A model generated the notes under the pieces. It saw only the letters and a list, made by a program, of their open reading frames with translations. It made no database searches and was not told where the DNA came from. Positions 42,869-61,908 of a stretch of 64,000 bases of DNA are shown piece after piece (positions within the stretch are counted from its first letter, which is position 1; each line of letters begins with the position of its first letter). Made by a program: the position numbers and the translations under genes. This DNA comes from Rhizoclosmatium globosum (lineage: Eukaryota > Chytridiomycota > Chytridiomycetes > Chytridiales > Chytriomycetaceae), in the NCBI GenBank assembly GCA_002104985.1, contig MCGO01000163.1, forward strand, positions 1 to 64,000, read 5' to 3'.

Positions 42869-45156
42869 ATGATGGAAATCTGGCTCCCCATCTCAGATAC
42901 ACTGAAACGATACTTGATACTATGGCTTTCTGTCTTCTGTATGGTCGGGGCAGGCTCGGTGTTTGCCTTCTCAGTGGTGGCAAGTCAGCTGCAAACACAG
43001 TTCAACTATTCTTCGGGTGACTTAAATGTTGTCTCTGGAGTTGGATTCGCGGCTCTTTATTTGGTATTTTCGTGGTTGAACTCTGAAATGTACTGATTTC
43101 TGACCAGCCCTTTTTGTTTATTGGACCTTTTTATGACATTGCTGGTCCGCAATGGACTCTCGTACTTGCCATAATTACTTATTCTGGAGGATATCTACTC
43201 CTATGGGGTGCGTATGTAGAGCGAATATCAGCAAGCGTGTTTGCAGTTTCCGTGTACTACTTTTTTGTTGGAATTGGGTCTACAGCAGCATACATGGCTG
43301 TGATCGGAGTGAACGTCGGCAATTTTGCTCCGAAATCAGCCGGGACAGTACGTTTCTCGTTTTATGTCGCCTTGTTGAATGATGTGGTTAGGTTACCGGT
43401 TTTCTGCACTTCTTTTATGCTGTTGCGGGAAGCATATATAGCGGAGTGTATCGCAGTTTTACGAATGTTCCGGGATATATTATATTCTTGGCTACATCAG
43501 TCGGTGTTACAGCCTTCGCAAGCATTTTTATCCTCTTTCAAGTCCCAATCAAGGACGAAGCGAAGACGGTGCCGAACGAAAATGAGAATAAGACTGCACG
43601 CTCACTCATTGATGAAATAGGGAGTTCTGAGAAAGTGGTGGAGAATGGTTTTCAAAGTGATGAGAATGTAATGTCTGCAACGTCAGTCACAAAGGCGGCG
43701 GCCACCGAACTACCAAATTATCTCGAAATGCCTGCACTGATACATTCCGACCAGAACTCTCTCACATCAATTCAAAAAACGATTCGACGGAAGGACACAA
43801 AACTCCCTCGAAATACACTCGTTGCACCTCTTCCACCCCTTCCACCCCTGAATGAAATTGACACGACAACAGACCAATTCACCCACACTAAAGCAAAGAA
43901 AAATCGGAAAAGTTCGCATCTCGTTCAAATTCAAATAGACACTCCTATAATAGATGAAAGAAGGCAAGTCAAATCAAAACGTGAATCCATGGACACAAAC
44001 CTCACTAGCAATCGGCAATCAATAGCTACCGGCTCGAAACGTGAATCCGTCAACTGCCTTTCAGACAAATCCCTGCCATGGGTCTACAACGACATCAAGT
44101 CTCCGCCAAGAACAAGCAAAGTTCGCGGATCCGATGAAAAGACTTTGTCTATCGACATTGGAACATTGAAATTGAAACCAACTGTCTGGATCCGTGATAT
44201 GAAACGCACGCAATCAATTCGACCGCATATGCCTGGAGGTTACAACGCAGAAATCCTACGTACAATTGCGACGATCAAGAGCAGAAACACACAAAGGAGT
44301 AAAGAAGTCGGCAACGAAAGTGAGGAGACTTTGGGGAATCACGAGTCGATTGGTTTGGATGAACATGAACTTACATCTGCGTGGGATATTCTTAAATCAC
44401 CTGTGTTTTGGTTCTACGCGTGCACGTGTATATTTCAGCAAGGGACTGTGTATATGACGAACGTGGGGACGATTTTGATGAGTGCTTATGGAGGTATTGG
44501 AGGAAAGAGTGGTGCCGACATTGATAGTATGATTTTGATGCATGTTATGTACATGTCAATGTTTCAGGCGAGTGGTATGTTTGGGTTTGGTGTGTTGAGT
44601 GATTTCTTGGAATCACTCAAGATTGTGTGGTTGGATCGGACAGTGTTGATGGTTATTTCGCAGATTGTGTTGTTGTTTCCTGTGGTTGCGTTGAGTACGA
44701 GTGATACTAGTGCGAGTACGCTATTATTTTGCTCTATTTGTACGGGTCTTGGATTTGGAGGAAGCAACTGCCTGTTACCTGTTCTGACGCAAGATTTCTT
44801 TGGGTTGCACTTCTTTGTAAGTGTAGAATATGCTTCATTCCTCCATTTGCTGAATCCTAACGTGCAATCTCTATCAGGGAACAGCTGTTGGATTCGCCAT
44901 GACCGGTGTACCAGTTGGAATTCTCATCTGCAATTCGGTGTTTGGAGTCTTGAATGACCAGCAAATGCGGACACAGGGATCTGCAATCGCGTGCTATGGA
45001 GCGGCATGTTATCAGAAGTCATTTCAAATCTTCACAGGAATTCAGGTTGTAGCTGTTGCAACGTCTCTAGGGTTATTAATTTTGAGACTGCGACAACGGT
45101 ACGCGCATTTAGAGGAGCATAAGCAAAGTCTTTCGAGTCTTCCAATCGCGGAATAA
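42869..45156 (+). CDS. Nodulin-like MFS transporter, copy 2
   Basis: Tandem paralogue of the preceding gene, same strand, 91 bp after its stop. It begins MMEIWLPISDTLKRYLILW and keeps SVFAFSVVASQLQTQFNYSS identical to copy 1, then after introns (about 43063-43108 and 43349-43392) FIGPFYDIAGPQWTLVLAII, GSIYSGVY and VPGYIIFLATSVGV. The central hydrophilic loop (43540-44370) has diverged strongly in sequence but not in length. The C-terminal half (AWDILKSPVFWFYACTCIFQ, FGFGVLSDFLESLKIVWLDR) is again very close, and the last intron (about 44818-44878) sits at the same position. Divergence concentrated in the cytosolic loop suggests different regulation more than different transport. Confidence 0.82.
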
Positions 45157-45233
45157 AATAAACACTAATGTATTTACTATGCATACTAATCTCCTTTCTT
45201 TTTTCTTTTGTTCAAGAAACGATCAACCAAACA

Positions 45234-46550
45234 ATGTCAATGGGAGACAGCACCAACACCACCCAACCAGAAGCAGCACCACCACCGATCCGCGCCCTTG
45301 AATTCTTTTGCGGCATCGGCGGACTCCACTACGGCCTCCAACTCAGCCAAACGCCTCTCTCAGACCAAGTCCAAACACCGCCAACCAACGGCAACAACTC
45401 AATCAAAGTCGTGGCCGCATTCGACATCAACCACGTCACAAACAACGTCTACAAACACAACTTTGGAAACCCGCCAATCCAAACAGCAATCGAAAAACTG
45501 TCGCCAAAAGACCTCGACAAGTACAACGCAAACACGTGGCTGCTCTCGCCTCCCTGCCAGCCTTTTACGCGCGGTGGAAAGAAGCTGGATGACTTGGACG
45601 CCCGCTCAAAGGGCCTCCTGCATCTCATTGGCGTCTTGCCCAAACTGGAACGCCCGCCAAAGTGGATCTTGCTCGAAAATGTGCTCAACTTTGAGGTGTC
45701 GAGGAGCAGGGATTTGTTGGTGCGGTGTTTGGAAGGGATGGGGTATGAATTTGAGGAGTGGTTGTTGAGTCCGTTGCAGTTTGGTATTCCGAATGATCGA
45801 AAACGGTATTATTTGACGGCTCGGAGGAGAGAGTCTGGTGCGTCCGAGAGTAGTGAGAAGGAATTGAAGAAAGACACGGAGACGACAAAGGAGGAAACTG
45901 AAAAAGGTGACAACGAGGAAGATGACGCGACAATTGACAAAGAGAAGGAAGAGGCTCCTCCTTTGGACTTGAAGACAGAGTGGGATTTTCCTGTGCCAGT
46001 CACACGAGAACTCTCGCATTATCTCGACCCAGGACTGAAGGGCAAGATTGGAGGATCGACGCCCCACATGCCATCATCAGATAAATCAGCTGCTGCAAGG
46101 ATACCAAAAGACGCGGATGCCTGCAATGACGTGGAAGCACTCAAGATTCCCGAAGCATTTGTCAAGAAACGCAAGTTTATTTCGGACGGATACGTGGTGG
46201 GTCCAGCGGAAAAGAAGTCAGCATGTTTCACAAAAGCGTATGGACATCACGGCATTGGAGCTGGGTCTTTCCTAATGACAAAAGGGTTTGATGTGGAGAA
46301 GGGCAGTGAAATGCCGGAGGAAGCGGTTGAGACTTATGGGTTACGATTTTTCAGTCCAACTGAAGTTGCGCGATTGCATGGGTTCCCAGTTCCAGACACA
46401 GTCGATAGAACGCTATTGGAACAAGATGGGTTCAGGACATTCACGTTCCCACAGGAGACAACGCTTATTCAGCGGTACCGAGTTCTTGGAAATTCATTGA
46501 ATGTTGTTGTTGTAGGAGAACTACTTCGACGAAGAGTGTTTTGTGAATAA
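45234..46550 (+). CDS. TRDMT1: Dnmt2/TRDMT1-type tRNA cytosine-5 methyltransferase
   Basis: Single exon, 438 aa. Methyltransferase motif I is [14 protein letters not shown], motif IV is [15 protein letters not shown] (catalytic Cys in PPCQPF), motif VI is [10 protein letters not shown], and motif VIII is [12 protein letters not shown]. The Dnmt2-specific CFT signature is present as [17 protein letters not shown], and motif X is [14 protein letters not shown]. Family members methylate C38 of tRNA-Asp and a few others rather than DNA. Between motif VIII and the target-recognition part there is an acidic, Glu/Lys-rich insert of about 60 residues (45840-45960). An ATG at 45168 in frame would add a hydrophobic leader and is less likely. 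The Aurora kinase ATG is only 12 bp after the stop. Confidence 0.92.
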
Positions 46551-46562
46551 AACGAGTGTTGG

Positions 46563-48204
46563 ATGCAGAAGCAGTCTCCAAAAAGTCCGAAAGGGAATCT
46601 TTCGAACGAAATGCACAGCACAACAACCGGGGCAGCCAAGGTGAGTTCTCTGCTGCCCACCACCACTACCAGTTCCAACCACCCAATTCACCCTCTATCC
46701 AGCGCGTCGTTCCCGTGGCAAAGACCGGCGCCGGAGTTGGAACTGGTTCCGGCACAGGCAAAGCACAACTCGTCGCATCCGCCGCGTCAAAGGCCGCGTC
46801 CGTCGCAAACCTTAGTTCTGCCGCCGCCGCGAACCACTCTTTGTCAAAGTCTGGCGCCCAATCAAAAGCTTCTGCCGCCGCGAAAGCCGCTGAGCCATCC
46901 GAGGCGACGTCTTCCTCGGTCGCTTCGTCTGTCCCAAAACAGAATTCAAATCAATCAACGGCCCTTCCTCCTTCAAACCAACAACAACAACAACAGCCTC
47001 AGAAACAAGAGGACCGTCGCTGGTCTCTCCAGGACTTTGACGTCGGTCGTGCTCTTGGAAAGGGAAAGTTTGGCCGCGTTTACTTGGCACGTGAAAAGAA
47101 GTCTGGCTATGTCGTGGCCCTCAAAATCTTGTTCAAGGCGGAGCTCATTGAGGCAAAGGTGGAAAAACAGCTTAGACGGGAAATTGAGATTCAGTCGCAT
47201 CTGAGGTATCCATCAGCTTATTTATCACCCCTCTTTTACTCATCCATGTCTTTGCATATAGGCATCCTAATATTCTTAGACTCTACGGCTACTTTTACGA
47301 CGCGAAACGCGTCTATTTGATTCTAGAGTACGCTGCAAACGGCGAATTATACAAGCAGCTCAAAAAGTGTAACCGTTTCTCAGAAGACCTTGCCTCCAAG
47401 GTATGCATGCTTTTTATAATTCACGTATCTCACTAACCACTCTCCCATCAAGTACATTTGCCAAATGGCTGATGCCCTCCATTACCTCCACAAGAAACAC
47501 GTTATCCACAGAGACATCAAACCTGAAAACTTGCTCATTGGTATAAAAGGAGAACTCAAAATTGCTGATTTCGGATGGTCCGTCCATGCCCCTAACACCA
47601 GGTACCTACCTCCATTCACCATATCCCTGCAAACGTTTTAACTTTCTTACAAAAAGACGGCAAACCCTCTGCGGAACCCTCGACTACCTCCCCCCTGAAA
47701 TGGTGGAAGGCAAAGAACACACGGACGCGGTGGATTTATGGTCTCTCGGTGTCCTTTGCTACGAATTCCTTGTGGGTGTTCCGCCATTTGAAGACCGGTC
47801 TTCGTATAAGGCCACGTATCGTCGTATCGCGCAAGTGGATCTTAAGATTCCAGAGTATTTGTCAAAGGAGGCTGGGGATTTGATTACAAAGGTGAGTCAG
47901 AGAAGAGTTGATGGTGTGGAGAGAGAGTGAATGGATGGAGTTGGACGGCGTTGGATGAGGATCTTAAGGAAACGAATTTGTGGAAGCAGATTCACTTACT
48001 ATTACGCCACAGCTTCTGCAGTACGCCCCAGAGAAACGTATGCCCCTAGAAAAAGTCATGTCGCATCCATGGATCCTCAAACACAATCCTCCAAAACCTA
48101 CTGCTCCAGAAGTCTCATCTGGATCAGAGTCTGGCGTCGCGTCTGTCACAAGTGGTGTCAAAGATATGTCTGTCAAGGCATCGTCCTCTGCATCAACCGC
48201 GTAA
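46563..48204 (+). CDS. AURK: Aurora-type mitotic protein kinase
   Basis: Exon 1 (46563-46640) starts [20 protein letters not shown] and joins across a 62-nt intron to a Ser/Ala-rich N-terminal region. The kinase domain has [28 protein letters not shown], then across introns [58 protein letters not shown] and [20 protein letters not shown]. The last is the Aurora activation segment, with the activating Thr in [34 protein letters not shown] follows and a short Ser-rich tail ends at 48204. Introns lie near 47203-47262, 47401-47453, 47602-47655 and 47892-48011. Expected in the chromosomal passenger complex or at spindle poles. As the only Aurora seen here, A/B type cannot be assigned. Confidence 0.95.
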
Positions 48205-48395
48205 GGAAAGTGGGTTGGGAGAAACGAAAACGACAGAATTTAGTCTAGTGTTTTAATTTATTGTATAGCACGAAAAGGAAAAACAAACAAACAGAAAAAA
48301 GTCTACTTCTATTCCCATAATTATTACTGTTCTCATGTATTTGATTATTCTTTTGGTTGGAGCACATTGTAATTCTCCTCTTGTAATTAGTGTTT

Positions 48396-49123
48396 TTACA
48401 TTGGAATCGTTCGACGTTGTTGTTGGCCTCCATTTATAATACTCCAAATATCCAGATCCTGACGTGTCCATTTGCCATACTTTTGTGATTCCAAGTATTG
48501 ATATTGTAGGACAAGAGCAATTACAAGAAGAGTGATCCAGCTTGCAGTTACTGTTTTGTAGTTTGATATAAGCTGGGTTTTGAGCGTCAAAGGGATTTGT
48601 TCTTGTGACTGCTTGACTGGGTATTCGTTCACAATTAACGTTGATAGAGTTGACAAGCTTTCGTAGGAACCAGTTGGAGATTCTGCCGCGGGAGAGAGTG
48701 GTGGAATTACGGATGCTGGTTGGTGTACCGTTTCTTTCAGGTATATTACGAGACGGCGGGGACTACGACGGCGTCGAAGCTTCTTGGTACGTGGTTTATT
48801 GCTATTTGGCTGGTCAGATGGCTTTTCGGATAGCTTGGAATTGTTGTGGGGAACAGGTGTTGGTGTTGTTTCAGAATCGGGAGTTGTTTCAAGGGGCGCT
48901 GTTTCGGGCGTTGGGTCTGTCTTTCTTTGGAGGGATTTAGTTGCTTTTGCAAGGGTGTCTGTTATGGGGATGTTAGTATCTGGTTGATGGGGGTGAAGGG
49001 GGTGAAGGGTTTTTTACATAGTCCAATGAGGGAGCCAGTCACGGCCATGAAAGTTGCCACATTTCGTTTGTGTCCTGGCCGAGAGGCGAGATTCTTGAAG
49101 GCCTCTCGTGTGGGTATAGACAT
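48396..49123 (-). CDS. Small membrane protein, unrecognised
   Basis: Two exons joined across an intron of about 60 nt whose 3' end has a TACTAAC-like branch site. Exon 1 starts at 49123 (MSIPTREAFKNLASRPGHKR) and contains a first hydrophobic stretch (FMAVTGSLIGLYTL at the join). Exon 2 has a Pro/Thr/Lys-rich linker (KTDPTPETAPLETTPDSETT) and a basic run, then SYESLSTLSTLIVNEYPVKQ. A C-terminal membrane segment (VTASWITLLVIALVLQYQYL) and a short polar tail end at 48396. I do not recognise the family. Two membrane passes with a disordered linker would suit a tethering or adaptor role, but this is speculation. Confidence 0.55.
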
Positions 49124-49400
49124 CTTTTGTGTTGTGCGGGGATGGGATTTGCTGTCAAACTTGACAATTCGTCGCAGATTCTAGTATCAGAAGAAGATAA
49201 CCAGAGAGGATGCTGAAAAGATCTCATTTTATTTAATACAACTTCATTTACAACTCCGATTTACAACTCAATATACAAACATTTACAAACGAAAAGGGAA
49301 AGAGTAAAAAGAAAAGAAAAAGAAGATTCGTTCAATAATTATGCGTGGCTTTGTCTTTTAACTGGTGGTTATTGATGGGTTGATAGTTTGGTTGCTTGGT

Positions 49401-50265
49401 TCATTGGTTATCCACCAAGATCTCAGCACCCGAACAGGGGCCAGTACTTTGATGCCTCTTGACATCAAATCGACGAGTGAATTTCTTGCTGCATCCTTCG
49501 CAAGTGAAGTACTTGATACCCATATGTGTTGAATAATGAGCACGGAGATTGAATGAGCGATCGAACGATCGAGAGCAACCGGGGAACGGGCAAGAAAAGA
49601 TTGTAACAGAGCCTGAAAACAAATACATTGTAAGTTAGTATTTAAAAAGATGAATGTGAGTGAGAGTGAGTGAGTGAGTGTGATAGCAAGGGCTTGGCTG
49701 AAGTAGACACCGTACATACCTCGTCGATGAGTCGCAGGCTTCTTTGTCTTTTTGCATGAGGAGATATCAATGTCCTTGTAGAGAGAGCTCAGTGAGTTTG
49801 AGCGGCCCTTTCTGCGTGGCATGTTGTCTGAATCTGGAGATGAAGGGGATGAAGGGATGAAGGGGATGGTGAAGATTCCAGCTTGACAGGCTGCCACTCA
49901 ATAGCCTCTGCATCTGAAGGTGCATCCATGACAGCATCCGCCAAGATACTCTTATTAGTCACTGGCACGGGCTTCTCCAGTCGCAGCGAAGTGTCAATAT
50001 GGAGGCCAGTTGGAGTTGACGGTGGAAGCGTTGCTGCTGCCGACACGGGCGAGTCTGAGTCGCTCGAGTATTCCTCTGACGTCAAAGGCGGAAGATCGAG
50101 GAGAAACAGCGGAGTTTCAAAGTGGGTGTGGATGTGCAGGTTGGGAGGCTGCCCTTGCACTTGCACTTGCACTTGGAGGGAAGTGGCGGAGGCACAGCTG
50201 CCAAACCACCATTCGTATCCTTCAAGGCCAAGGTCGTGGCTGAACACTGCTGCTGATTCACTCAT
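49401..50265 (-). CDS. C2H2 zinc-finger transcription factor (one frame break)
   Basis: The start at 50265 (MSESAAVFSHDLGLEGYEWW) opens an acidic, Ser/Pro-rich N-terminal region with a basic MPRRKGRSNSLSSLYKD segment near its end. After an intron at about 49619-49720 the last exon encodes two C2H2 fingers: FSCPFPGCSRSFDRSFNLRA followed by HYSTH, and YFTCEGCSKKFTRRFDVKRH with the second His/Cys provided by QSTGPC. A one-base shift is required at the GGG run 49854-49856, within a CCCCTTCAT-type tandem repeat. DNA-binding residues of finger 2 (R, D, R at helix positions) resemble fungal stress-type regulators. Target genes unknown. Confidence 0.75.
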
Positions 50266-50667
50266 AGCTTGATGGGGAGTTGCGTTGTGGTTGTGATTTC
50301 GGTGGAGAAAGTGATTGCCAATTTATCGTGCTTTTGCGATTTTGAGGGGAAAAGGGTGGCTTGCTTGGCGAAACCAATCAAGTACGACTTTGTGACAGGT
50401 TTGGAACAAGCTTTTCCCTTCTTGGAACTTTCAACGGAGGCTGAAACCTTATTCCTCACACGCTAAGAATGCCCGTTGGACGTTGCCACCCGTGCCTCTG
50501 TTTCAAGGTTTCAAGGCACATAAATTCTTTGATGTATCTCGCTAAAATCAAAGGGTGTCTTCTGTTTGGGGCCTCTTTTCAAATAAATTAAAATGATAAT
50601 ATTTTGCTGAGATTTGGAACGCCATTGTTTCTCAGCCCATTCTGGAAGCGACCAAATCAAAAACGAA
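50266..50667. promoter_or_regulatory. Divergent promoter between the zinc-finger gene and the MARK kinase gene
   Basis: About 400 bp between divergent start codons. ORFs on both strands here are complementary shadows with no protein-like pattern. Confidence 0.45.
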
Positions 50668-52857
<2,190 letters not shown>

Positions 52858-53008
52858 TTTTTCCTTCTTTCTTATCCTCTTGACTTTACTATTTTTAAAT
52901 TAAAGGACCGTAATACTCTCGGGAACAAATTGCAGTTGTTAAATTCAGTCTGCTTCCTCCCCACTAACGTCCATGAATACCTTTAAAAAGCTTTTCACTT
53001 GAATTATT

Positions 53009-56000
53009 TTATTTACTAAACACTAATACAACAGGATACGCTCCGGTCACAGCCTTGAAAGTCCCCCGAGAATTTCGCCCACCAACCCATCCAATTACAG
53101 GAAACAAAGACTCCTGATCTGCATCTGCTCCAATAATCGTAATCTGATCTGTTTTCGGTATTGTCTCAACATAATATTTCCCCGTGAATCCTTCGACGAC
53201 TGCAGTGATTCCGTAATCCGAAGAGAGTTCAGTTATTGAGTCAACAACAGGCGAGTATATTGCTGCAGTAATTACGCACGTGCGACACTTTGCATGAAAT
53301 CGCTTGTAGGAATGGATCGCAGTACGAAGAGAACCTTCGCCAGTCTCGATTTGTACTGATTGAGTTGCTGTTATATTTGATGTCTCTATCTGACCCCATT
53401 CTGTGGACACTATGAAGTTATTGAGAGTAAGTGGGTTAATGAAACGGATGGAACCGCCGCTGGACTTGATAGATACAGAGTCAGTAATTGGCGGTCCTTG
53501 ATAAATAACATGTATCTTTGTTCCCGTGATATTGAGAGCAGTTAATGGCGACGGAAGAGTGACGTAGAGGACAGTTGTGTGGCTTCCAGAGTAGAAAGGT
53601 ACGTCAAATGAAACGGTAATTTGCAGTGAAGAATCAGTTGAAATCAAAACGGGCTCGACAGTGATTGAAGGATGTGATACATCCCAAGCGACCTTCTCTT
53701 AGCACTGAGTGAGTCGGGGATTCGAGCCCAAAATCGGAAATCCCGGCCCACCCGAAATAAACCAATTTTCCACTTAACATGCTTCGTGCTAAACTCACCA
53801 ACTCCAACAGCCATCCAGCGAGCAATAGAGCTCAGTACTCCAGTTTGGCAAGATTCCAAGGCTCGGCCTTGCAAAAGACTCGAGTTTTATCAGATATGAC
53901 AGAGCAATTCAATAACACCCATTCTGTTCGAAAGGCGGCAGAAACAGTAGCCAAAGAGCACGGTTTGAGCAAGGATCAGGTGCGAGGATTATATCGCAGA
54001 AGTGAGAAGAGTGCGGGACGATCGCACGGGAACCGACGGTTCTCTGATGAGGAAGAGGAAACTTTCGTCGCCTTTCTTGAGGCCCGATCAATATGTCATC
54101 GACCCATGGCACGTTTAGACTTTATTGAATTGATTACAGCATACGATCATCAGGCTCGGGGACCGTCGGAATGGACGGCTCGGGCGTGGTATGATGGTTT
54201 CAAGGAGAGACACAAGGATCGCATTAACACTCGAACTACGAAAGCTATCAGTCCAGCTCGCACGTCACCGCTTACTGAAGCTGAGGTCAATGACTGGGTT
54301 GATCGCTTTGAGCGTTGGATGACTGTTGGCCGCTACAGCTGGAAGAACTTGGTCAATGTGGATGAAATGCGCTTGAAGCTCTTCAACAGTTCCTCTAGCT
54401 CCAAGGCAATTGTTAGCAACCTTGTATCCCGCCCAAATGAGCTTACTGGCACTCGAGGCAAGATGGCTAGCTTCATTCCTTTTGTCACTGCTTCTGGCGA
54501 GCGCATTCTTGATGTTTTGGTTTTGCCAATCAGCTTCGGAAATCTGCAAATCCACGATCCTGATGCTGGAAAGCGGCAGAAAGATGCCATTCCTATAAGA
54601 CTAGTCTTCAGTGAGACTGGATTCTTGACAGAGGAACAATGGATTCCGGTTCTTGCTGAGTTTAAAGCCTCGTGGAACAGTTTTCATCCAAGTTTGACTC
54701 CTGTACTCTTAATGGACAACCTTGGCGTCCACAAAACAGCTGATGCTCTGGATTCTTGCCTCAAGCTTGGCATACAAGGCTTTTTCTTACCTGCCAATAG
54801 CACACACTTCTTGCAGCCCTTGGATGATGCTATTTTCGCGAATTTGAAACGCAAAATTGTGCGCCTATTCCAACACAAAAGAAGCTTTCACAACTGTACC
54901 TTTGCGAGTCTAGGCTCAGAAATGATACCAATCGTTCTGGAGGCACGTAAGTCTTTATCTAAAAAGTGGATAATGGATTCATTTAGACACACCGGAATTT
55001 ATCCGTGGTCAAAAGAAACTATTCGAAAAAATGCCCTCCTCAACATTGCCGACGCCCCCTCCCTTGAAGGAGCTCTCCCACAAGTTGCCACCCAGCTACT
55101 CAAAGTATTTGACTCTCGGACTACCGGATCATTGGTCAATAAGGTCTCAGGCAACATGCAAAGTGTCCTTAAGTTGAACAAGACATACTCAATCCAAGAT
55201 CTTCATCAAACACAACAGGAAGCGGTGGAAACGAAGGCTGCAAAGCGGAAAGCCATTGAAGAGTCTAAGGAAAATCGAAAGCGTGTGAAGGAAGCAAAGG
55301 ATGCAGCGGATATTGCGAAGAAAGAGGCTAGTTTGTGTCAGGCAATAACAAACAACGACCGCTGCGCAACATTCTGGAAGCGTAGCACTGCCTGGCTCAA
55401 CTGTGACATATGCGGAAAGTATCGAATTTGTCCAGCGCACAAGTACAAGTTTGAGGAACAGTTTATGGCACATGTAGAGGCTCATGATCTTGGTTCTCAT
55501 TAGACTCTCTATATCTTCCTTATCTTTTATTCTGAAATCGTGGAACTTTGAATAGAGCATAAACGAATAAAGAACATATGTTTTACGAAGATTCAAGGAA
55601 CTCGGAGCAATATTGCAGAAGTAACAGGCCAATGAACCAAATTTGAGGTGGGCCGGGATTTCCGATTTTGGGCTCGAATCCCCGACTCACTCACTTAGTT
55701 TTGAAGTGAACTGGCGCCAATCAAACCTTTGCCATGTTTCCCTCTCCTTCAAGAACCACCACACTTGTCTCGCCTGGGCCCGCAGTTATCACTCTCAGAC
55801 TGTTGAAGGATACGGACGGAACCATTTGAACGCCAGATGAGTAGTCTGCCTTGAATGGAAACAGGTATGCTATAGCCAATAGGGACACTCCAATAAAGAG
55901 TGCTATTTCAACAAGCCAAGTTGCCCATGTCTTTGGAAGTCGTTGAGGCTGTTCATGGACTGCTTCTGCTTCGAGAAGGGGTGCACTCTCCAGTGAACCA

Positions 56001-56020
56001 GAGTTCGAATTTAATGACAT
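53009..56020 (-). CDS. Single-pass adhesin-like (DUF4097-type) protein A, with a transposon in its intron
   Basis: Exon 1 (55727-56020, 98 codons) has a cytosolic head with ESAPLLEAEAVHEQ, a membrane helix (WLVEIALFIGVSLLAIAYLF) and the first extracellular strand. Exon 2 (53009-53695, 229 codons with stop) has repeated beta-strand units such as VLYVTLPSPLTALNITGTKI and FINPLTLNNFIVSTEWGQIE, and ends AVTGAYPVVLVFSK. The join keeps frame and yields 326 aa, matching paralogues B (334) and C (332). The intron (53696-55726) consists of 35 nt of original intron plus a 1,991-bp transposon and a 5-bp duplication. The gene may therefore still be expressed if the long intron is removed. Surface role inferred only from topology. 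Confidence 0.72.
53706..53752 (+). repeat. Left terminal inverted repeat of the DDE transposon
   Basis: 47 bp, exact reverse complement of 55647-55693. Contains a GGGGATTCGAGCCC core that resembles a tRNA B-box. Confidence 0.95.
53779..55503 (+). CDS. DDE_1-type transposase
   Basis: 574 aa from the first ATG. An internal ATG at 53896 (MTEQFNNTHSVRKAAETVAK) begins right at the DNA-binding helix-turn-helix region and may be the real start, since the 39 residues before it are not family-like. The catalytic core has the expected acidic triad: NVDEM (first Asp, about residue 195), LLMDNLGVHK (second Asp, about 313) and FLQPLDDAIF (third Asp, about 350), with a STHFLQPLDD context typical of the pogo/CENP-B-like DDE_1 group. 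The C-terminus has a coiled, Lys/Glu-rich segment and a Cys/His cluster (NCDICGKYRICPAHK). No stop or frame break interrupts it. Confidence 0.92.
   Translation: MLRAKLTNSNSHPASNRAQYSSLARFQGSALQKTRVLSDMTEQFNNTHSVRKAAETVAKEHGLSKDQVRGLYRRSEKSAGRSHGNRRFSDEEEETFVAFLEARSICHRPMARLDFIELITAYDHQARGPSEWTARAWYDGFKERHKDRINTRTTKAISPARTSPLTEAEVNDWVDRFERWMTVGRYSWKNLVNVDEMRLKLFNSSSSSKAIVSNLVSRPNELTGTRGKMASFIPFVTASGERILDVLVLPISFGNLQIHDPDAGKRQKDAIPIRLVFSETGFLTEEQWIPVLAEFKASWNSFHPSLTPVLLMDNLGVHKTADALDSCLKLGIQGFFLPANSTHFLQPLDDAIFANLKRKIVRLFQHKRSFHNCTFASLGSEMIPIVLEARKSLSKKWIMDSFRHTGIYPWSKETIRKNALLNIADAPSLEGALPQVATQLLKVFDSRTTGSLVNKVSGNMQSVLKLNKTYSIQDLHQTQQEAVETKAAKRKAIEESKENRKRVKEAKDAADIAKKEASLCQAITNNDRCATFWKRSTAWLNCDICGKYRICPAHKYKFEEQFMAHVEAHDLGSH
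55647..55693 (-). repeat. Right terminal inverted repeat of the DDE transposon
   Basis: 47 bp, exact reverse complement of 53706-53752, followed by CTTAG (55694-55698). Confidence 0.95.
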
Positions 56021-56084
56021 TTACTAGTTACATTTACTTCTTCCTCTCCTCTCATTTCTTCTCTCTGTTCTTCATAATAAAAGA

Positions 56085-57089
56085 ATGGAAGTAACACCTC
56101 TACTGCCTCATCAATCACCAGCCCACCCTCTGGCCCTACAAGATCCACTCAAACATAAAATATGCTTGAAACGAACAACTTTGATTGGCATTTCCCTTCT
56201 CCTCCTTCTCATCATTATCTTCGAATCATCAAAGTTTGCCGTCACTTTCCGATTCCCAGCAAAGTTGGCCAACGAGGCAGCGTCTCTCAAATCAATCCGC
56301 TTTTCGTATGAAGGTGTTGGGACTGTGAAAGTGATTGCCGTGCGGGGAAAGGACATGAAATATACGATGTTGGAAGCCGAATACATCACCACCGATTGGA
56401 CTCGTCTCTTTGGAACGACAATGGACGCACTGGTAGATCAAGAGGACCCTACTTCTATCCGGTTCATTGCCAAATTCCCTCCCCTCAATACACTCTTCAG
56501 CCCAAGGATCACTGTCACAATTTATGCATACCTGCCACTTGAAGTCGAAAACTTATCTATTCAAGGCGAAGATATTGATGTGATATACATGGGTCCCAAC
56601 GTTTCAAAGACCTTAAGTGTCAAAGTTCAGCGAGGAACTATCCAAATCCTCACCCCGATTTCATTAGTAAACGTTGCACTATCGACAACAAAGGGAACTT
56701 TAAGGATAGAAAACGCGAACGCCACAACGTTTGAATTGGCAGCTCTAGATTTATCCTCGTCAGTATCTGTGACTGGCCGAATAGGAGGTTTCAAATCAGC
56801 TGTAATCACTACTAAAAGCGCTTCTGTCAATATGTTTCTCTACCCAGACGTATCCGCGTCTATTAAAATGAAATCTATAAAGGGGAGCTACAAGTTGGGG
56901 ACCTATGGATTCAAAGGGAATGTGTCCTTCTCAAGTCAAAGACATGCTGGATTATTTGATGGAATTGACTGGCCCTTGCTGGGAATCTTACCGACACGAG
57001 CCACTGTTGGAGGAAAGGATGGGAGAGGCGTAATGTCAATTGAAACCCAACAGGGTATAGGGCAGTTCATATTTGCAAAGTTTTTATAA
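56085..57089 (+). CDS. Single-pass adhesin-like protein B
   Basis: Single exon, 334 aa. Short cytosolic head MEVTPLLPHQSPAHPLALQD (with an acidic/dileucine-like TPLL), a membrane anchor (TLIGISLLLLLIIIFESSKF), then an extracellular region of repeated beta strands: YAYLPLEVENLSIQGEDIDV, ILTPISLVNVALSTTKGTLR, IGGFKSAVITTKSASVNMFL. The repeat of 'short polar turn plus V/I/L strand' resembles the DUF4097 putative-adhesin fold seen in bacteria and fungi; that assignment is by pattern only. It ends with FDGIDWPLLGILPTRATVGG. The start is 64 bp from the divergent start of paralogue A. Confidence 0.75.
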   Translation: MEVTPLLPHQSPAHPLALQDPLKHKICLKRTTLIGISLLLLLIIIFESSKFAVTFRFPAKLANEAASLKSIRFSYEGVGTVKVIAVRGKDMKYTMLEAEYITTDWTRLFGTTMDALVDQEDPTSIRFIAKFPPLNTLFSPRITVTIYAYLPLEVENLSIQGEDIDVIYMGPNVSKTLSVKVQRGTIQILTPISLVNVALSTTKGTLRIENANATTFELAALDLSSSVSVTGRIGGFKSAVITTKSASVNMFLYPDVSASIKMKSIKGSYKLGTYGFKGNVSFSSQRHAGLFDGIDWPLLGILPTRATVGGKDGRGVMSIETQQGIGQFIFAKFL

Positions 57090-57149
57090 AATAGTTTCGT
57101 TTCTCCTAGCTGTTGTTCATGGCTGTTGTTCGGAAATAATTATCAAATA

Positions 57150-58148
57150 ATGGAGTCATCACCTCTGTTGGAAGAAACGATTTCCCAATCACTTCCACCA
57201 CTACAAAATACCCAACCTCGAAGGACATTGTTTCACCGCACAATCACAATATGCATAGCAATACTACTTGTCGTCATCCTCCTCTATGAACCGTCAAAGT
57301 ACATGATCATGTTCCGCTACTACGGCCGCATCCAGAACAAAGCCGAAGCTCTCAAAGCAGTTTATTTCACAAGCGAAGGAGCTGGAACAGTCAAAATCAT
57401 CGTTTTGCGAGGGACGCAGCCACAGTCTGCCGTCCTCGTTTCTGAATATGCATCGACAGACTGGACTCGCTTGTATCAAACAAACATTGAGACAACACTT
57501 GATGAAGATGATCCAACTGTTTGTCGGTTCCGTGTCCAGTTTGCACCTCTCAATCGAGGTTTCAATCCCAACATCAAACTCACCATCTATGCGTACCTTC
57601 CCCTTGAACTTAAAAATGTATCTATTCAAGGCAGCTATATTGACCTTATGTATTTGGGTCCCAATGTGGCTGATACTCTGAACGTCGAAGTGCAACAGGG
57701 ATCTGTCCGCATACTCACCCCCATTTTAGCCAAGCGAATCACGCTCTCAACAACAAAAGGAAATCTTAAGATGGATAATGTTCATGCAACCACAATTCAT
57801 ATTAAGTCATTGGATCAGGATTCGGTCGGTACCATTTCTGGTACTATAGGAGGATTCAATTCCGCAATTCTAGAAACTCGGAGTGGGGACATTCGAGCAA
57901 TCCTGAACCCAATAGCAAATGCATCGATTTTTATGAGATCTATCTCTGGTAGTTATTATCTTACTACGTATGGTTTTAAAGGAAACCTTACGTTTTCGAG
58001 CCAAGTACATCCCGGATTGTTCGATGGCATTGATTTTCCCCTTCTTGGCCTTTTTCCTACTCGTGCAACTGTAGGTGGAAAAGATGGGAAGGGTATCATG
58101 TATGTAGAAACTCAAACGGGATTAGGACAGCTCTTTTTTAAGGAATAA
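57150..58148 (+). CDS. Single-pass adhesin-like protein C
   Basis: Single exon, 332 aa, tandem paralogue of B, 60 bp after its stop. It has MESSPLLEETISQSLPPLQN, a membrane anchor (TITICIAILLVVILLYEPSK), then strands AYLPLELKNVSIQGSYIDLM, ILAKRITLSTTKGNLKMDNV and TISGTIGGFNSAILETRSGD. It ends FDGIDFPLLGLFPTRATVGG, almost the same as B. The shared STDWTRL / TTDWTRL and the conserved C-terminal block define the family; A lacks the exact C-terminal block and is the most diverged. Confidence 0.75.
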   Translation: MESSPLLEETISQSLPPLQNTQPRRTLFHRTITICIAILLVVILLYEPSKYMIMFRYYGRIQNKAEALKAVYFTSEGAGTVKIIVLRGTQPQSAVLVSEYASTDWTRLYQTNIETTLDEDDPTVCRFRVQFAPLNRGFNPNIKLTIYAYLPLELKNVSIQGSYIDLMYLGPNVADTLNVEVQQGSVRILTPILAKRITLSTTKGNLKMDNVHATTIHIKSLDQDSVGTISGTIGGFNSAILETRSGDIRAILNPIANASIFMRSISGSYYLTTYGFKGNLTFSSQVHPGLFDGIDFPLLGLFPTRATVGGKDGKGIMYVETQTGLGQLFFKE

Positions 58149-58208
58149 TTAAAGCTAAATCGATCTTTATTGTGCTCAAAAAGAAAAAAGATAGACGGAT
58201 ATGCTTGT

Positions 58209-60002
58209 TTACTCCTCGCGACGCTTTGTGACCTTCAACTCCAGCCCGTTTGGCAAGTGGCAAACGATTCCATCAACAAGTTCAAGCTTTTGTCCAGGAA
58301 TAAGCTCAAAATCAAAGGTTCTAAGCAATTGGATCAAAACAACCTAAAGAAAATTCAAATGAGTAAAAACCATCATTTTACAAACATATCAAAATAATTC
58401 GGTACCTTGGCCTCCATAATAGCCATTTTCATTCCAGGACACATGTGCTGACCTGCACCGAATGGCATGAAAGTTCCATCCACAACTTCCTTGTTAATCC
58501 AGCGCTCAGGCTTGAACTCTTCCGCATCTGGGCCCCAGTATTGAGGATCTAAAAACACAGTCTGTAAGTTGGCGCTGAAATAGTCCTAGATAAAATATAA
58601 GTTATAGCCCCAAAAGCATCAGAAACGATACAAACATTCTTCTTAAACTTGTAGCCCAGCATTTCCATATTCTCGGAAGCAACAACACGGTCCAGTCCCA
58701 TAAGGATGTTTTTGGTTCTTTGGGTCTCCTTGAAAACGTAGTCCAAGTATTCAAACTTGGAGAGTTCGTCCAAACGCGGGAATTCAGTAGTTCCCGGAGG
58801 GTAATTTGCATCAATTTCGTGACGAAGAGTTTTCAAGGCATCTGGGTGTTGGCACAACTGGAGGAATACGTTGGTAATTGTGTTGGAAGTAGTGTCGTGA
58901 CCTGCAAACATGAGAGCCATGCATTCATCACGAATTTCCTTATCGGAAAAGAGCTGAAACAAATAGATTACTACTTCTTTCTAACGGAAGTGTTATATTT
59001 ACCATTTCCCCGTCTTCGGTCTTCTTGAGAAGTGGAGTCAACAAATCAGATTCACTTTCTTCTTCTTCCCCTTCTTCAGCCTTCTGTCTACGAGGGGCCA
59101 AAAACTCATTGATCATAGGATCAAAGTAAGTTGCAATCGGGACCACATCCGTCTCCGAAATTTTGAAGAATCCCCAAAGGAACTTTGGCACAAACGTACG
59201 ATAGATACCGATACGGCCAATCTCATCCACATACGTTCTCAATTGAACGCTTCTTTTGTCAACAGAATCCTTTCCTGACTTGAAGTCGTCGAAGCCTTGG
59301 AGGCAGTTCATGTCGTGCGAGAACGCCACGCGGGTGAGAACGTCGAGAGTCAAGAGAGACAAGTATTCACGGATATTCATGACAAATGAACCGTCTTCTG
59401 AGTTTGCAATATGGGTGTCGAACATACGGGTGAGGTCTTGAACCAGGTCCACAGTGACACCATAAGCCTTGCGCACGAATTGAGGACCCATTCCACTAAC
59501 AATTGCCTTGCGGTGCTTTTGCCAAACTGGTCCAGTCTCCATGGCGAATAAAGCTTGAATTAAAGGTTTAAGGTAAGGTTCAGCATAACTGATATCACAC
59601 TTAAAGAATTCAAAAAAGACTCACCATAACCGAAGACGTCCGGAGTCACCTTCAAGAAGAAATCGTTACGTCTAAACTCTTTGGATGTCAAGATGCGCTT
59701 CATTTCCGTTGGATCGGAAACATAGTTCTCAACTCTATCAAAGATAAAGTGTGTCATGATTGGCCCAAGGGTACGATTGAGCTGTATGGAAAGAGATAAC
59801 GTAAGATACTATGTTCACCGCTCGAGTAAGGGTTTACATTGCGGTAGTAAAGATAGAAAGTGTCTGTGAGAAGCGGCATAAGGAAGTCAGGCATATTGTG
59901 GATCAAGGGCCAGTTAGTCAGATGCGGAGGAGTTCCACTCTTGGCAGGCATAGCTGGCACAGGTTCTCTGGCAGGAATAGTGACAGTGGGTTCGGTAGTC
60001 AT
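58209..60002 (-). CDS. Cytochrome P450, copy 1
   Basis: Haem-thiolate monooxygenase. The start at 60002 (MTTEPTVTIPAREPVPAMPA) lacks an obvious membrane helix, unlike copy 2. Exons then give PIMTHFIFDRVENYVSDPTE, WQKHRKAIVSGMGPQFVRKA (C-helix WxxxR), the I-helix LMFAGHDTTSNTITNVFLQL (oxygen-binding AGxDTT), the KETQR ExxR motif, FKPERWI and the haem loop FGAGQHMCPGMKMAIMEAK (Cys ligand). The last exon ends LELVDGIVCHLPNGLELKVT. All core motifs are intact. Fungal substrate unknown; the first-part sequence is CYP4/CYP3-like only in general plan. Confidence 0.92.
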
Positions 60003-60126
60003 ATGTCGTTCAGGATCAAGAATTGCAGCAAAAAAACGTGCCTCAGAAAAAATTTCATACTTGGTGAAGGGTTCAGCCCAGTCCCCAACAAATCAAGGCA
60101 AGTTTACAAGCTCAGCCCTGTTTTTC

Positions 60127-61908
60127 TTAGGCTGCAGTTACCCATTCCCTACTATTCTCTGACCCTCTCTTTGTCACTCTCAGCTTCAATCCTTCCGGCA
60201 AATGATTCACAACACCATCCACAAGCTCCAACTTCTGACCATCAACCAACTCAAAGTCGAAAAACCGCACCAGCTGAATCAAAACAACTTTGGCTTCCAT
60301 CAATGCCATCTTCATTCCAGGGCATGCGTGTGGTCCTGCAGAGAAGGGATAAAATGTTCCGTCGACAACTTGATGATTGATCCATCGTTCAGGTTTGAAT
60401 TCTTCTGAATCAGGACCCCAAATTTCAGGATCTAAAAGGATGGCTCTGTTATTGGCCATGAAGTAATCCTGACGTCAATTGTAAGTTTCAAGTTTTGATT
60501 TGATCTGAGGGAAAATTACTCACTCCCTTTTTGAATTTGTATCCCAGAACTTCAATCTCATCTGCGGCCACTTCACGATCAATACCCATTATAATAGGCA
60601 TAGTTCGCTGAGTTTCTTTGATTACATAGTCAACGTATACGAACTTAGTCAAATCATTGAATGCAGGACAGGTTTCGTCGTTGGGAGAAGTCAGATCATC
60701 AATCTCGGTACGCATAGCAGCTAAAGCATGTGGATTTTTGCATAGTTGCAAAAACACGTTCGTGATTGTGTTTGAGGTGGTGTCGTGGCCGGCAAACATT
60801 ATGGCGAGACATTCATCACGAATCTCCTTGTCTGAGAATAACTAAAAGGTGTATAAATACTAAAGAACTGAATAAAACGATGGATACCATTTCTCCGTCG
60901 TCTCCACGTCCCAGTAACACTGTTAGCAAATCGTTGATTCCTTCCTCTCCATCCGTCCCTTCTTCAACTGCCTTTCTTCGAGGACCCAGGAATCCCATAA
61001 TCATATCATCAAAGAACTTGTTTTGTGGAGCAATGTGGCGCTTTGTCACCTTAAAGAACCACCACAAGAAGGAAGGGATAAGCAATCTCGTAACACCAAC
61101 GCGACTGACTTCATCGATATTCTTTCGCAGATTTCCATTTCCTGATGCAGATTCTTCCCTTCCCAACCGTCTATCGTCATCATATGTTTGCAGGCAGTTC
61201 ATGTCATGCGTAAAGGCAACCCTTGTAATGACGTCCAAGGTGATGAGCGATAGATACTCCCGAATATTCAATTCATAGGACTTTGAAGGAGATGTGTCGA
61301 TATGAGCGTTGAACATCCGAATCATATCATCCATTAATTCCACAGTCACGGTATAAGCTTTACGCACAAATTGGGGACCCATCCCACTAACAATTGCTTT
61401 CCGATGCTTTTTCCAGAGTGGTCCGTTCTCCATTCCAAAAAGTGCTGTCAAACAGTGTTCAGCAGTTAGTGAGAACATTCAGCCACGTACCGAACCCAAA
61501 CACATCCTGATTCGGCCGCAAGAGAAAGTCAGTGCGCACAAACTCTGGTGATGTTGCAATGCGCTTGCAGGTGTCTGGATCGGACACGTGGTACTCAATC
61601 TTGCCCACGAGGTTGTTGGTAGTGATGTGGCCGAGCTTCAGCTGAACCTGTGCATTGGTTAAAGCATTAGAAGGCCCTTGAGTAAGAGTGAAGGGTGTAA
61701 GAGAAAGCGTTACCTGTCGAAGGTAGATGTAGAATGTTCCGTTGATAAGGTGTTTTGCAAAGTATGGAAGGTGGCCAATCAGAGGCCAGTTTGGAAGCGA
61801 TGGAGGCCGCTTGGACTTGTCGCTTTTACTTGACAATGTGAAGAGGGCGGCGGCAGCGATCACGGCAACAGAGACTCCTCCGAGAACCTGGGGTGTTGTC
61901 GCTTCCAT
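60127..61908 (-). CDS. Cytochrome P450, copy 2
   Basis: Tandem paralogue of copy 1, same strand. The start at 61908 gives an N-terminal membrane anchor (GGVSVAVIAAAALFTLSSKS) and a PSLPNWPLIGHLPYF proline hinge, so it should sit in the ER membrane. Motifs: WKKHRKAIVSGMGPQFVRKA, the I-helix segment IMFAGHDTTSNTITNVFLQL, ETQRTMPI (ExxR), FKPERWINHQVVDGTFYPFS and the haem loop FSAGPHACPGMKMALMEAK. Exon limits match copy 1, with introns of about 45-60 nt. Lack of the anchor in copy 1 could mean loss or an unfound first exon. A PAPS-like redox partner is not nearby. Confidence 0.92.

What the first reader, a model, noticed from the sequence alone, without database searches (positions are those of the whole stretch)
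53009..56020. An intact DDE transposon sits inside a 35-nt intron and the host gene still reads through
Removing 53696-55726 as one intron joins 98 and 229 codons in frame to give 326 aa, close to the two neighbouring paralogues (334 and 332 aa). The element landed on CTAAG, the branch-site region of the original intron, and the duplication (CTTAG on the plus strand) leaves that motif and the acceptor AG next to exon 2. The insertion may thus be spliced out like an intron, a very precise neutral landing site in a gene-dense genome.
Basis: partly seen in the sequence, partly recalled or inferred. Interest (0 to 1): 0.85.

Follow-up and report, generated by a model that had tools for sequence, protein, structure and literature searches.

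The report
Young transposon inside a tiny intron
In a water fungus, one of the two copies of an ordinary membrane-protein gene carries a freshly inserted jumping gene inside a very short intron while the other copy is still empty, so existing RNA data could show whether cells can still splice the gene correctly.

Summary
The insertion is real and the same assembly holds an empty copy of the locus, most likely the other allele. The genome is Rhizoclosmatium globosum (chytrid). Contig C357 matches the window at about 97% over some 16 kb and lacks the element. Its deposited 325-aa protein fits removal of a 46-nt intron at this place. The element is 53707-55692 (1,986 bp, ~52-bp inverted repeats, intact 574-aa DDE_1 transposase), identical base for base to a copy on C113. 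Two details are wrong: the duplication is ACT (3 bp), not CTTAG, and the intron was 45-46 nt, not 35. 'The gene still reads through' is not shown. This haplotype has GAAG where the empty copy has TTAG, and the insertion creates a better-scoring CAG acceptor 12 nt upstream that leads to an early stop. I expect mostly truncated product, though the inverted repeats could loop the element out. The element itself is unusual: 12 of 12 complete insertions examined have exact, variable 3-bp duplications, none TA-based, unlike published pogo (DDE_1) elements. Public RNA-seq (PRJNA789147) could decide.

The parts
53707..55692 (+). DNA transposon, 1,986 bp, identical to C113:31475-33460
   Evidence: 0 of 1,986 differences; absent from the matching contig C357
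53704..53706 (.). target-site duplication ACT, left copy
   Evidence: 3 bp shared by both flanks on the empty copy; 3-bp duplication at 12 of 12 complete insertions examined
55693..55695 (.). target-site duplication ACT, right copy
53707..53758 (+). left terminal inverted repeat, begins GAGTGAGTCGGGG
   Evidence: 96% match over 53 bp (53706-53758 with 55641-55693) to the right end
55641..55692 (-). right terminal inverted repeat
   Evidence: paired with the left repeat in the predicted minimum-energy fold of the transcript
53779..55503 (+). transposase ORF, 574 aa, DDE_1; D195, D313 and D349 invariant against two relatives
   Evidence: (PF03184, 31.8 bits, cut-off 22)
55727..56020 (-). host gene exon 1, 98 codons
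   Evidence: 99.4% identical to the empty copy over 331 bp; deposited model P0001
55693..55726 (-). 5' part of the host intron, donor GTTTGA, 34 nt including one TSD copy
   Evidence: identical in the empty copy; donor score 5.3, range of 16 CCT introns 4.9-11.0
53693..53703 (-). 3' part of the host intron, 11 nt, GCTAAGAGAAG; acceptor GAAG stands where the empty copy has TTAG
   Evidence: acceptor score -0.7 against 5.5 in the empty copy
53705..53707 (-). new CAG acceptor made by the element's last C plus AG of the TSD; its use leads to a stop after one codon
   Evidence: score 4.9; predicted product 99 aa
55685..55694 (-). two overlapping GTGAGT donor-like sites at the junction and inside the TIR
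   Evidence: scores 4.8 at 55694 and 3.2 at 55690
53009..53692 (-). host gene exon 2 with stop, DUF4097-like
   Evidence: against the empty copy dN 0.037, dS 0.244
56085..57089 (+). neighbouring paralogue, one uninterrupted ORF of 334 aa
57150..58148 (+). second paralogue, one uninterrupted ORF, 332 aa from its first ATG

Best explanation
A pogo-like (DDE_1) cut-and-paste transposon inserted very recently, with a 3-bp duplication, into the 3' part of a pre-existing 45-46-nt spliceosomal intron of a DUF4097-like, probably membrane-anchored gene, on one of two haplotypes. Shown: the element, its ends, its duplication, its identical second copy, the empty copy of the locus, and the intron position in that copy's deposited model. 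Inferred: the two contigs are alleles; host donor GTTTGA is still usable, but the acceptor side is weak (GAAG) and overshadowed by a new CAG at the junction, so most spliced transcripts of this allele should end after about 99 codons while the empty allele makes the protein. A minority of full-length mRNA is possible because the two inverted repeats can pair in the transcript and bring the host donor and acceptor back to about 48 nt outside the stem.
For: Empty copy on C357, syntenic over 16 kb; deposited 325-aa model of it; exact TSDs and identical copies; intron sizes 44-65 nt in CCT genes; splice-site scoring and enumeration; TIR-TIR stem in the minimum-energy fold. On the gene strand the element also holds acceptors up to 8.2 (54958) and a donor of 7.9 (53798), above the host sites, and two AATAAA motifs at 55531 and 54126, so exonisation or early ending is possible too.
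Against: The scoring matrix rests on 16 introns picked by hand from 32 gaps in nine CCT genes and scored on themselves; one of them has two equally scored readings (61 or 40 nt). One of the 16 uses an AAG acceptor, so AAG can work. No RNA data were available. Branch points were not scored. Exon 2 of the insertion haplotype shows dN/dS about 0.15, so that haplotype probably had a working gene, perhaps with the same GAAG acceptor, for much of its history; this suggests GAAG may function. Ploidy was not measured, and one of five insertion sites searched (C157) gave no full-length second copy.
Confidence: 0.78

Rival explanations
1. The element is spliced out precisely together with the intron and the insertion is neutral. 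TIR pairing loops the element out, hides the TIR's own donor and branch-like motifs in the stem, and leaves host donor and GAAG or GAG acceptor at native distance.
For: Host donor is unchanged and in range; full-length pairs exist (312, 326 and 325 aa); the TIR stem forms in the predicted fold, with the host donor unpaired; an AAG acceptor occurs in one of 16 CCT introns; exon 2 was under purifying selection.
Against: GAAG and GAG acceptors score -0.7 and 0.1, below all 16 training acceptors (4.3-7.6); the new CAG at 53705-53707 scores 4.9 and lies upstream; stronger splice-like sites lie inside the element. No deposited 325-aa model for this allele.
Confidence: 0.25
2. C72 and C357 are a segmental duplication rather than alleles, so the intact gene is a paralogue and the interrupted one is a free copy.
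For: Ploidy was not measured; two of the sites searched occur three times, and for C157 no full-length second copy was found: the other matches cover about 245 of 600 bases or are 71% alike.
Against: Synteny over 16 kb at about 97%; three further sites (C113, C79, C1) have a matching copy without the element; several loci of unrelated families recur in pairs, as expected of an assembly that keeps both haplotypes.
Confidence: 0.1
3. There is no intron: the insertion hit a gene already broken by a frameshift, and in-frame joining is coincidence.
For: The donor is weak and the insertion haplotype lacks a good acceptor.
Against: The empty copy has GTTTGA...TTAG of 46 nt, the deposited model splices it, and the join gives a protein 94% identical over the whole length.
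Confidence: 0.03

Closest known systems
pogo superfamily (Fot/Fot-like, Tigger) of the IS630-Tc1-mariner group
   Same: DDE_1 domain with three invariant D in DE / DNxxxH / QPLD motifs (35 residues between the last two), 1.99 kb length, ~52-bp TIRs; most Fot and Fot-like TIRs are 40-60 bp in PMC7386202 (passages seen)
   Different: TSDs are variable 3-bp sequences (ACT, GCT, ATC, TTT, ATT, AAG, CTT, AAT, AGT), whereas the same paper's passages report TA, TAA or TAAA
Introners / TIR elements that become introns (PMC9860276, passages seen)
   Same: TIR element with a short TSD; splice sites can come from element or TSD; the TIR carries GTGAGT and its complement ACTCAC, a branch-like motif
   Different: It fell into an existing intron rather than making one, is autonomous and low-copy, and splicing is untested
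Tc1 insertions removed by splicing in C. elegans (Rushforth and Anderson 1996; only its reference-list entry was seen; content recalled)
   Same: A DNA transposon within a gene whose transcript may be rescued by splicing
   Different: There the splicing was measured (recalled)
Zator and CACTA elements (3-bp TSDs recalled, not from a call)
   Same: 3-bp duplications
   Different: Different transposase families (recalled); Pfam reported DDE_1 here as the only family over its cut-off

Membership tests
pogo superfamily | DDE_1 transposase | tested here: met
   PF03184, E 1.3e-07, 31.8 bits over cut-off 22; D195, D313, D349 invariant with two relatives
pogo superfamily | TA, TAA or TAAA target duplication | tested here: not met
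   12 of 12 complete insertions (11 independent sites) have exact 3-bp TSDs, none TA-based; both flanks share 3 bp on each of four empty sites read; published range from PMC7386202 passages. Only 2 of the 12 are autonomous copies
pogo superfamily | psq/CENP-B type N-terminal helix-turn-helix | tested here: inconclusive
   No Pfam HTH above its cut-off; by eye the N-terminus resembles one (recalled)
pogo superfamily | Transposase falls in the pogo clade of a tree | not tested
   Only two relatives found; no tree built
Introner | Element sequence repeated as introns of many genes | tested here: not met
   The TIR search gives 39 matches, about 25 elements by my grouping, a lower bound; of 11 independent sites examined, 2 lie in introns, one of them by eye only
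Introner | Element is spliced precisely from mRNA | not testable with these tools
   No RNA reads held
Spliceosomal intron (host) | GT...AG, in-frame join, size typical of the genome | tested here: met
   46 nt in the empty copy, deposited model; 16 CCT introns 44-65 nt

The most novel reading that the evidence does not exclude
This family is a DDE_1 transposon lineage with variable 3-bp targets whose inverted repeats carry a splice donor (GTGAGT) at one end and hence a branch-like ACTCAC at the other. In transcripts the repeats pair, hiding these signals when the element sits in an intron, and they could act as an intron when it sits in an exon: with an AGN duplication, splicing from GA|GTGAGT to CAG|N would add exactly one codon (worked out by hand), as could happen at the C1 exon insertion, whose TSD is AGT. 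It would be an introner precursor caught while still an autonomous transposon. Against it: ACTCAC then lies only about 5 nt from that CAG, so another branch point would be needed.
Probability: 0.1. Interest if true: 0.72.

Novelty: new variant of a known kind. Interest (0 to 1): 0.42.

Why it matters
Both versions of the locus, with and without a 2-kb insertion in a 46-nt intron, lie in one sequenced genome of a species with public transcriptomes, so the question whether a short-intron fungus can skip a long hairpin insertion can be answered without new cloning. The element also seems to widen the target rule of pogo-like transposases.

Tried and rejected
A TA duplication (usual for DDE_1 elements) was tried first and rejected: empty sites show 3-bp overlaps without TA. 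An unsupervised splice-matrix fit gave coding artefacts and was replaced by 16 introns chosen by hand from 32 gaps in nine CCT loci; the other 16 gaps, without one clear candidate or repeating a near-identical intron, were dropped. The structure prediction was useless (mean pLDDT 39) and no fold search was made. Transposase homology searches gave two distant relatives; a profile of the three returned only one of these again. Rfam gave no match at gathering scores in the window. An intron preference of the family was considered: 2 of 11 independent sites is not enough to claim it, and one site (C1) is in an exon. Second copies were sought for five sites: C72, C113, C79 and C1 have one without the element; for C157 none was found. 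I looked for papers on DDE_1 or pogo elements with 3-bp duplications, on fungal transposons spliced from introns and on chytrid heterozygosity, and judging by the listings found none on point; one listed paper that holds '3-bp TSD' (PMC6850418) was not opened. These searches cover open PMC text only.

Full report
What it is. The window lies at C72:1-64000 of a 56.9-Mb assembly. A joined host protein finds one relative, P0001, named BCR33DRAFT_853784 of Rhizoclosmatium globosum, on a contig of 375,936 bases, the length of C357. So the organism is that chytrid.

The empty copy. C357:117000-133000 matches window 43409-61465 at 97-98% for most of its length and has no element. Window 52318-53710 and 55692-56022 match adjoining stretches of C357. 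On the gene strand the empty copy reads AAAG|GTTTGATTGGCGCCAGTTCACTTCAAAACTAAGTGCTCATGATTAG|GTTGC: a 46-nt intron with an in-frame TGA. P0001 is 325 aa and continues NMAK-VAWD across it. It is the deposited model of the empty copy; whether RNA backed that model I cannot see.

The element. It spans 53707-55692: 1,986 bp, identical to C113:31475-33460 with 0 differences. Its ends match each other at 96% over 53 bp. The ORF of 574 aa has DDE_1. Two relatives from short contigs, 24-25% identical over about half the length, keep D195, D313 and D349. The left flank ends in ACT and the right begins with ACT. The empty copy has one ACT there, so the duplication is 3 bp. The C113 copy has GCT; its flanks overlap by 3 bp on C51. 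Twelve complete elements all have exact 3-bp duplications and no longer match: two autonomous and ten of about 1.43 kb (the two read in full, C1 and C290, are 1,430 bp with no open stretch above 94 aa). C79 and C68 have identical flanks and count as one site, so there are 11 independent sites. These 12 are the ones whose two ends I held, out of 39 TIR matches; the rest were not examined. Second copies of the locus were sought for five sites. Four have one without the element: C72 on C357, C113 on C51, C79 on C9, C1 on C67. For C157 no full-length second copy was found.

Is the intron ordinary? From nine CCT loci I took 16 clear introns out of 32 gaps: 44-65 nt; acceptors TAG 8, CAG 7, AAG 1; donors include GTTTG once and GTTCG twice. 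A 46-nt intron with GTTTGA and TAG is therefore normal here; 35 nt would be outside this sample.

Does the interrupted gene still read through? On a matrix from those 16 introns the host donor scores 5.3 (range 4.9-11.0). The empty copy's acceptor scores 5.5 (range 4.3-7.6). I enumerated pairs with donors at about 55661-55820 and acceptors at about 53561-53770: the eight best give 89-115 aa; the best full-length pairs give 312, 326 and 325 aa. Sites inside the element were not paired, but some score higher than the host's: acceptors up to 8.2 (54958), a donor of 7.9 (53798); the host donor ranks eighth of 174 GT sites in gene plus element. The element also has two AATAAA on the gene strand. 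The GAAG difference need not be the element's doing; it belongs to a stretch that differs between the haplotypes. The exon-2 frame is intact, with dN 0.037 and dS 0.244 between copies, so this haplotype was under selection and GAAG may work; this speaks against my reading. In the predicted minimum-energy fold of the 2.1-kb transcript the two inverted repeats pair end to end, covering nearly all of the two GTGAGT junction donors and the terminal CTCAC, and leave the host donor unpaired, with host donor and acceptor about 48 nt apart outside the stem. So precise removal is possible, but it is a prediction only.

Age. Identity of the two element copies against roughly 1-8% divergence of the flanks means the insertion is young, probably younger than the split of the haplotypes.

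Known or new. A transposon in an intron is common (general knowledge). The element resembles pogo/Fot by domain, size and TIR length, but published pogo duplications are TA, TAA or TAAA (PMC7386202, passages). I do not file it as a pogo member. Introners (PMC9860276, passages) are the nearest known link between TIR elements and introns, but this family is not one by copy number or position.

Verdict. Observation partly confirmed; interpretation partly supported. The value lies in the natural pair of filled and empty copies and in the odd target rule.

Noticed in passing
window 52800-53703 against 55693-56022: Divergence from C357 changes abruptly at the insertion: 92% identity on the exon-2 side, 99.4% on the exon-1 side; dS 0.244 against 0.028. 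It may be a recombination or gene-conversion boundary at the insertion, or chance; similar divergent blocks lie at 45900 and about 59700-60150.
   Followed up: partly
window 56023-56067: About 45 bp of the short divergent promoter between the host gene and its neighbour is missing from the empty copy on C357.
   Followed up: no
L011:1281-2710 (C1:778280-779709): A 1,430-bp non-autonomous element with the same ends lies in a coding exon of a CsaA-like tRNA-binding protein (name by eye); the matching copy on C67 is empty.
   Followed up: partly
L048/L068 (C79:440652-442076) and C68: Another copy lies in what looks by eye like an intron, 9 nt before its acceptor (TTTTCTCAG); the copy on C9 is empty. 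C79 and C68 flanks are identical, so a duplicated contig is possible.
   Followed up: partly
window 53707-53716: The TIR begins GAGTGAGTCG: GTGAGT equals the donor of several CCT introns and its complement ACTCAC resembles their branch region.
   Followed up: partly
window 58373-61908: Two tandem cytochrome P450-like genes on the minus strand, apparently with short introns (by eye).
   Followed up: no
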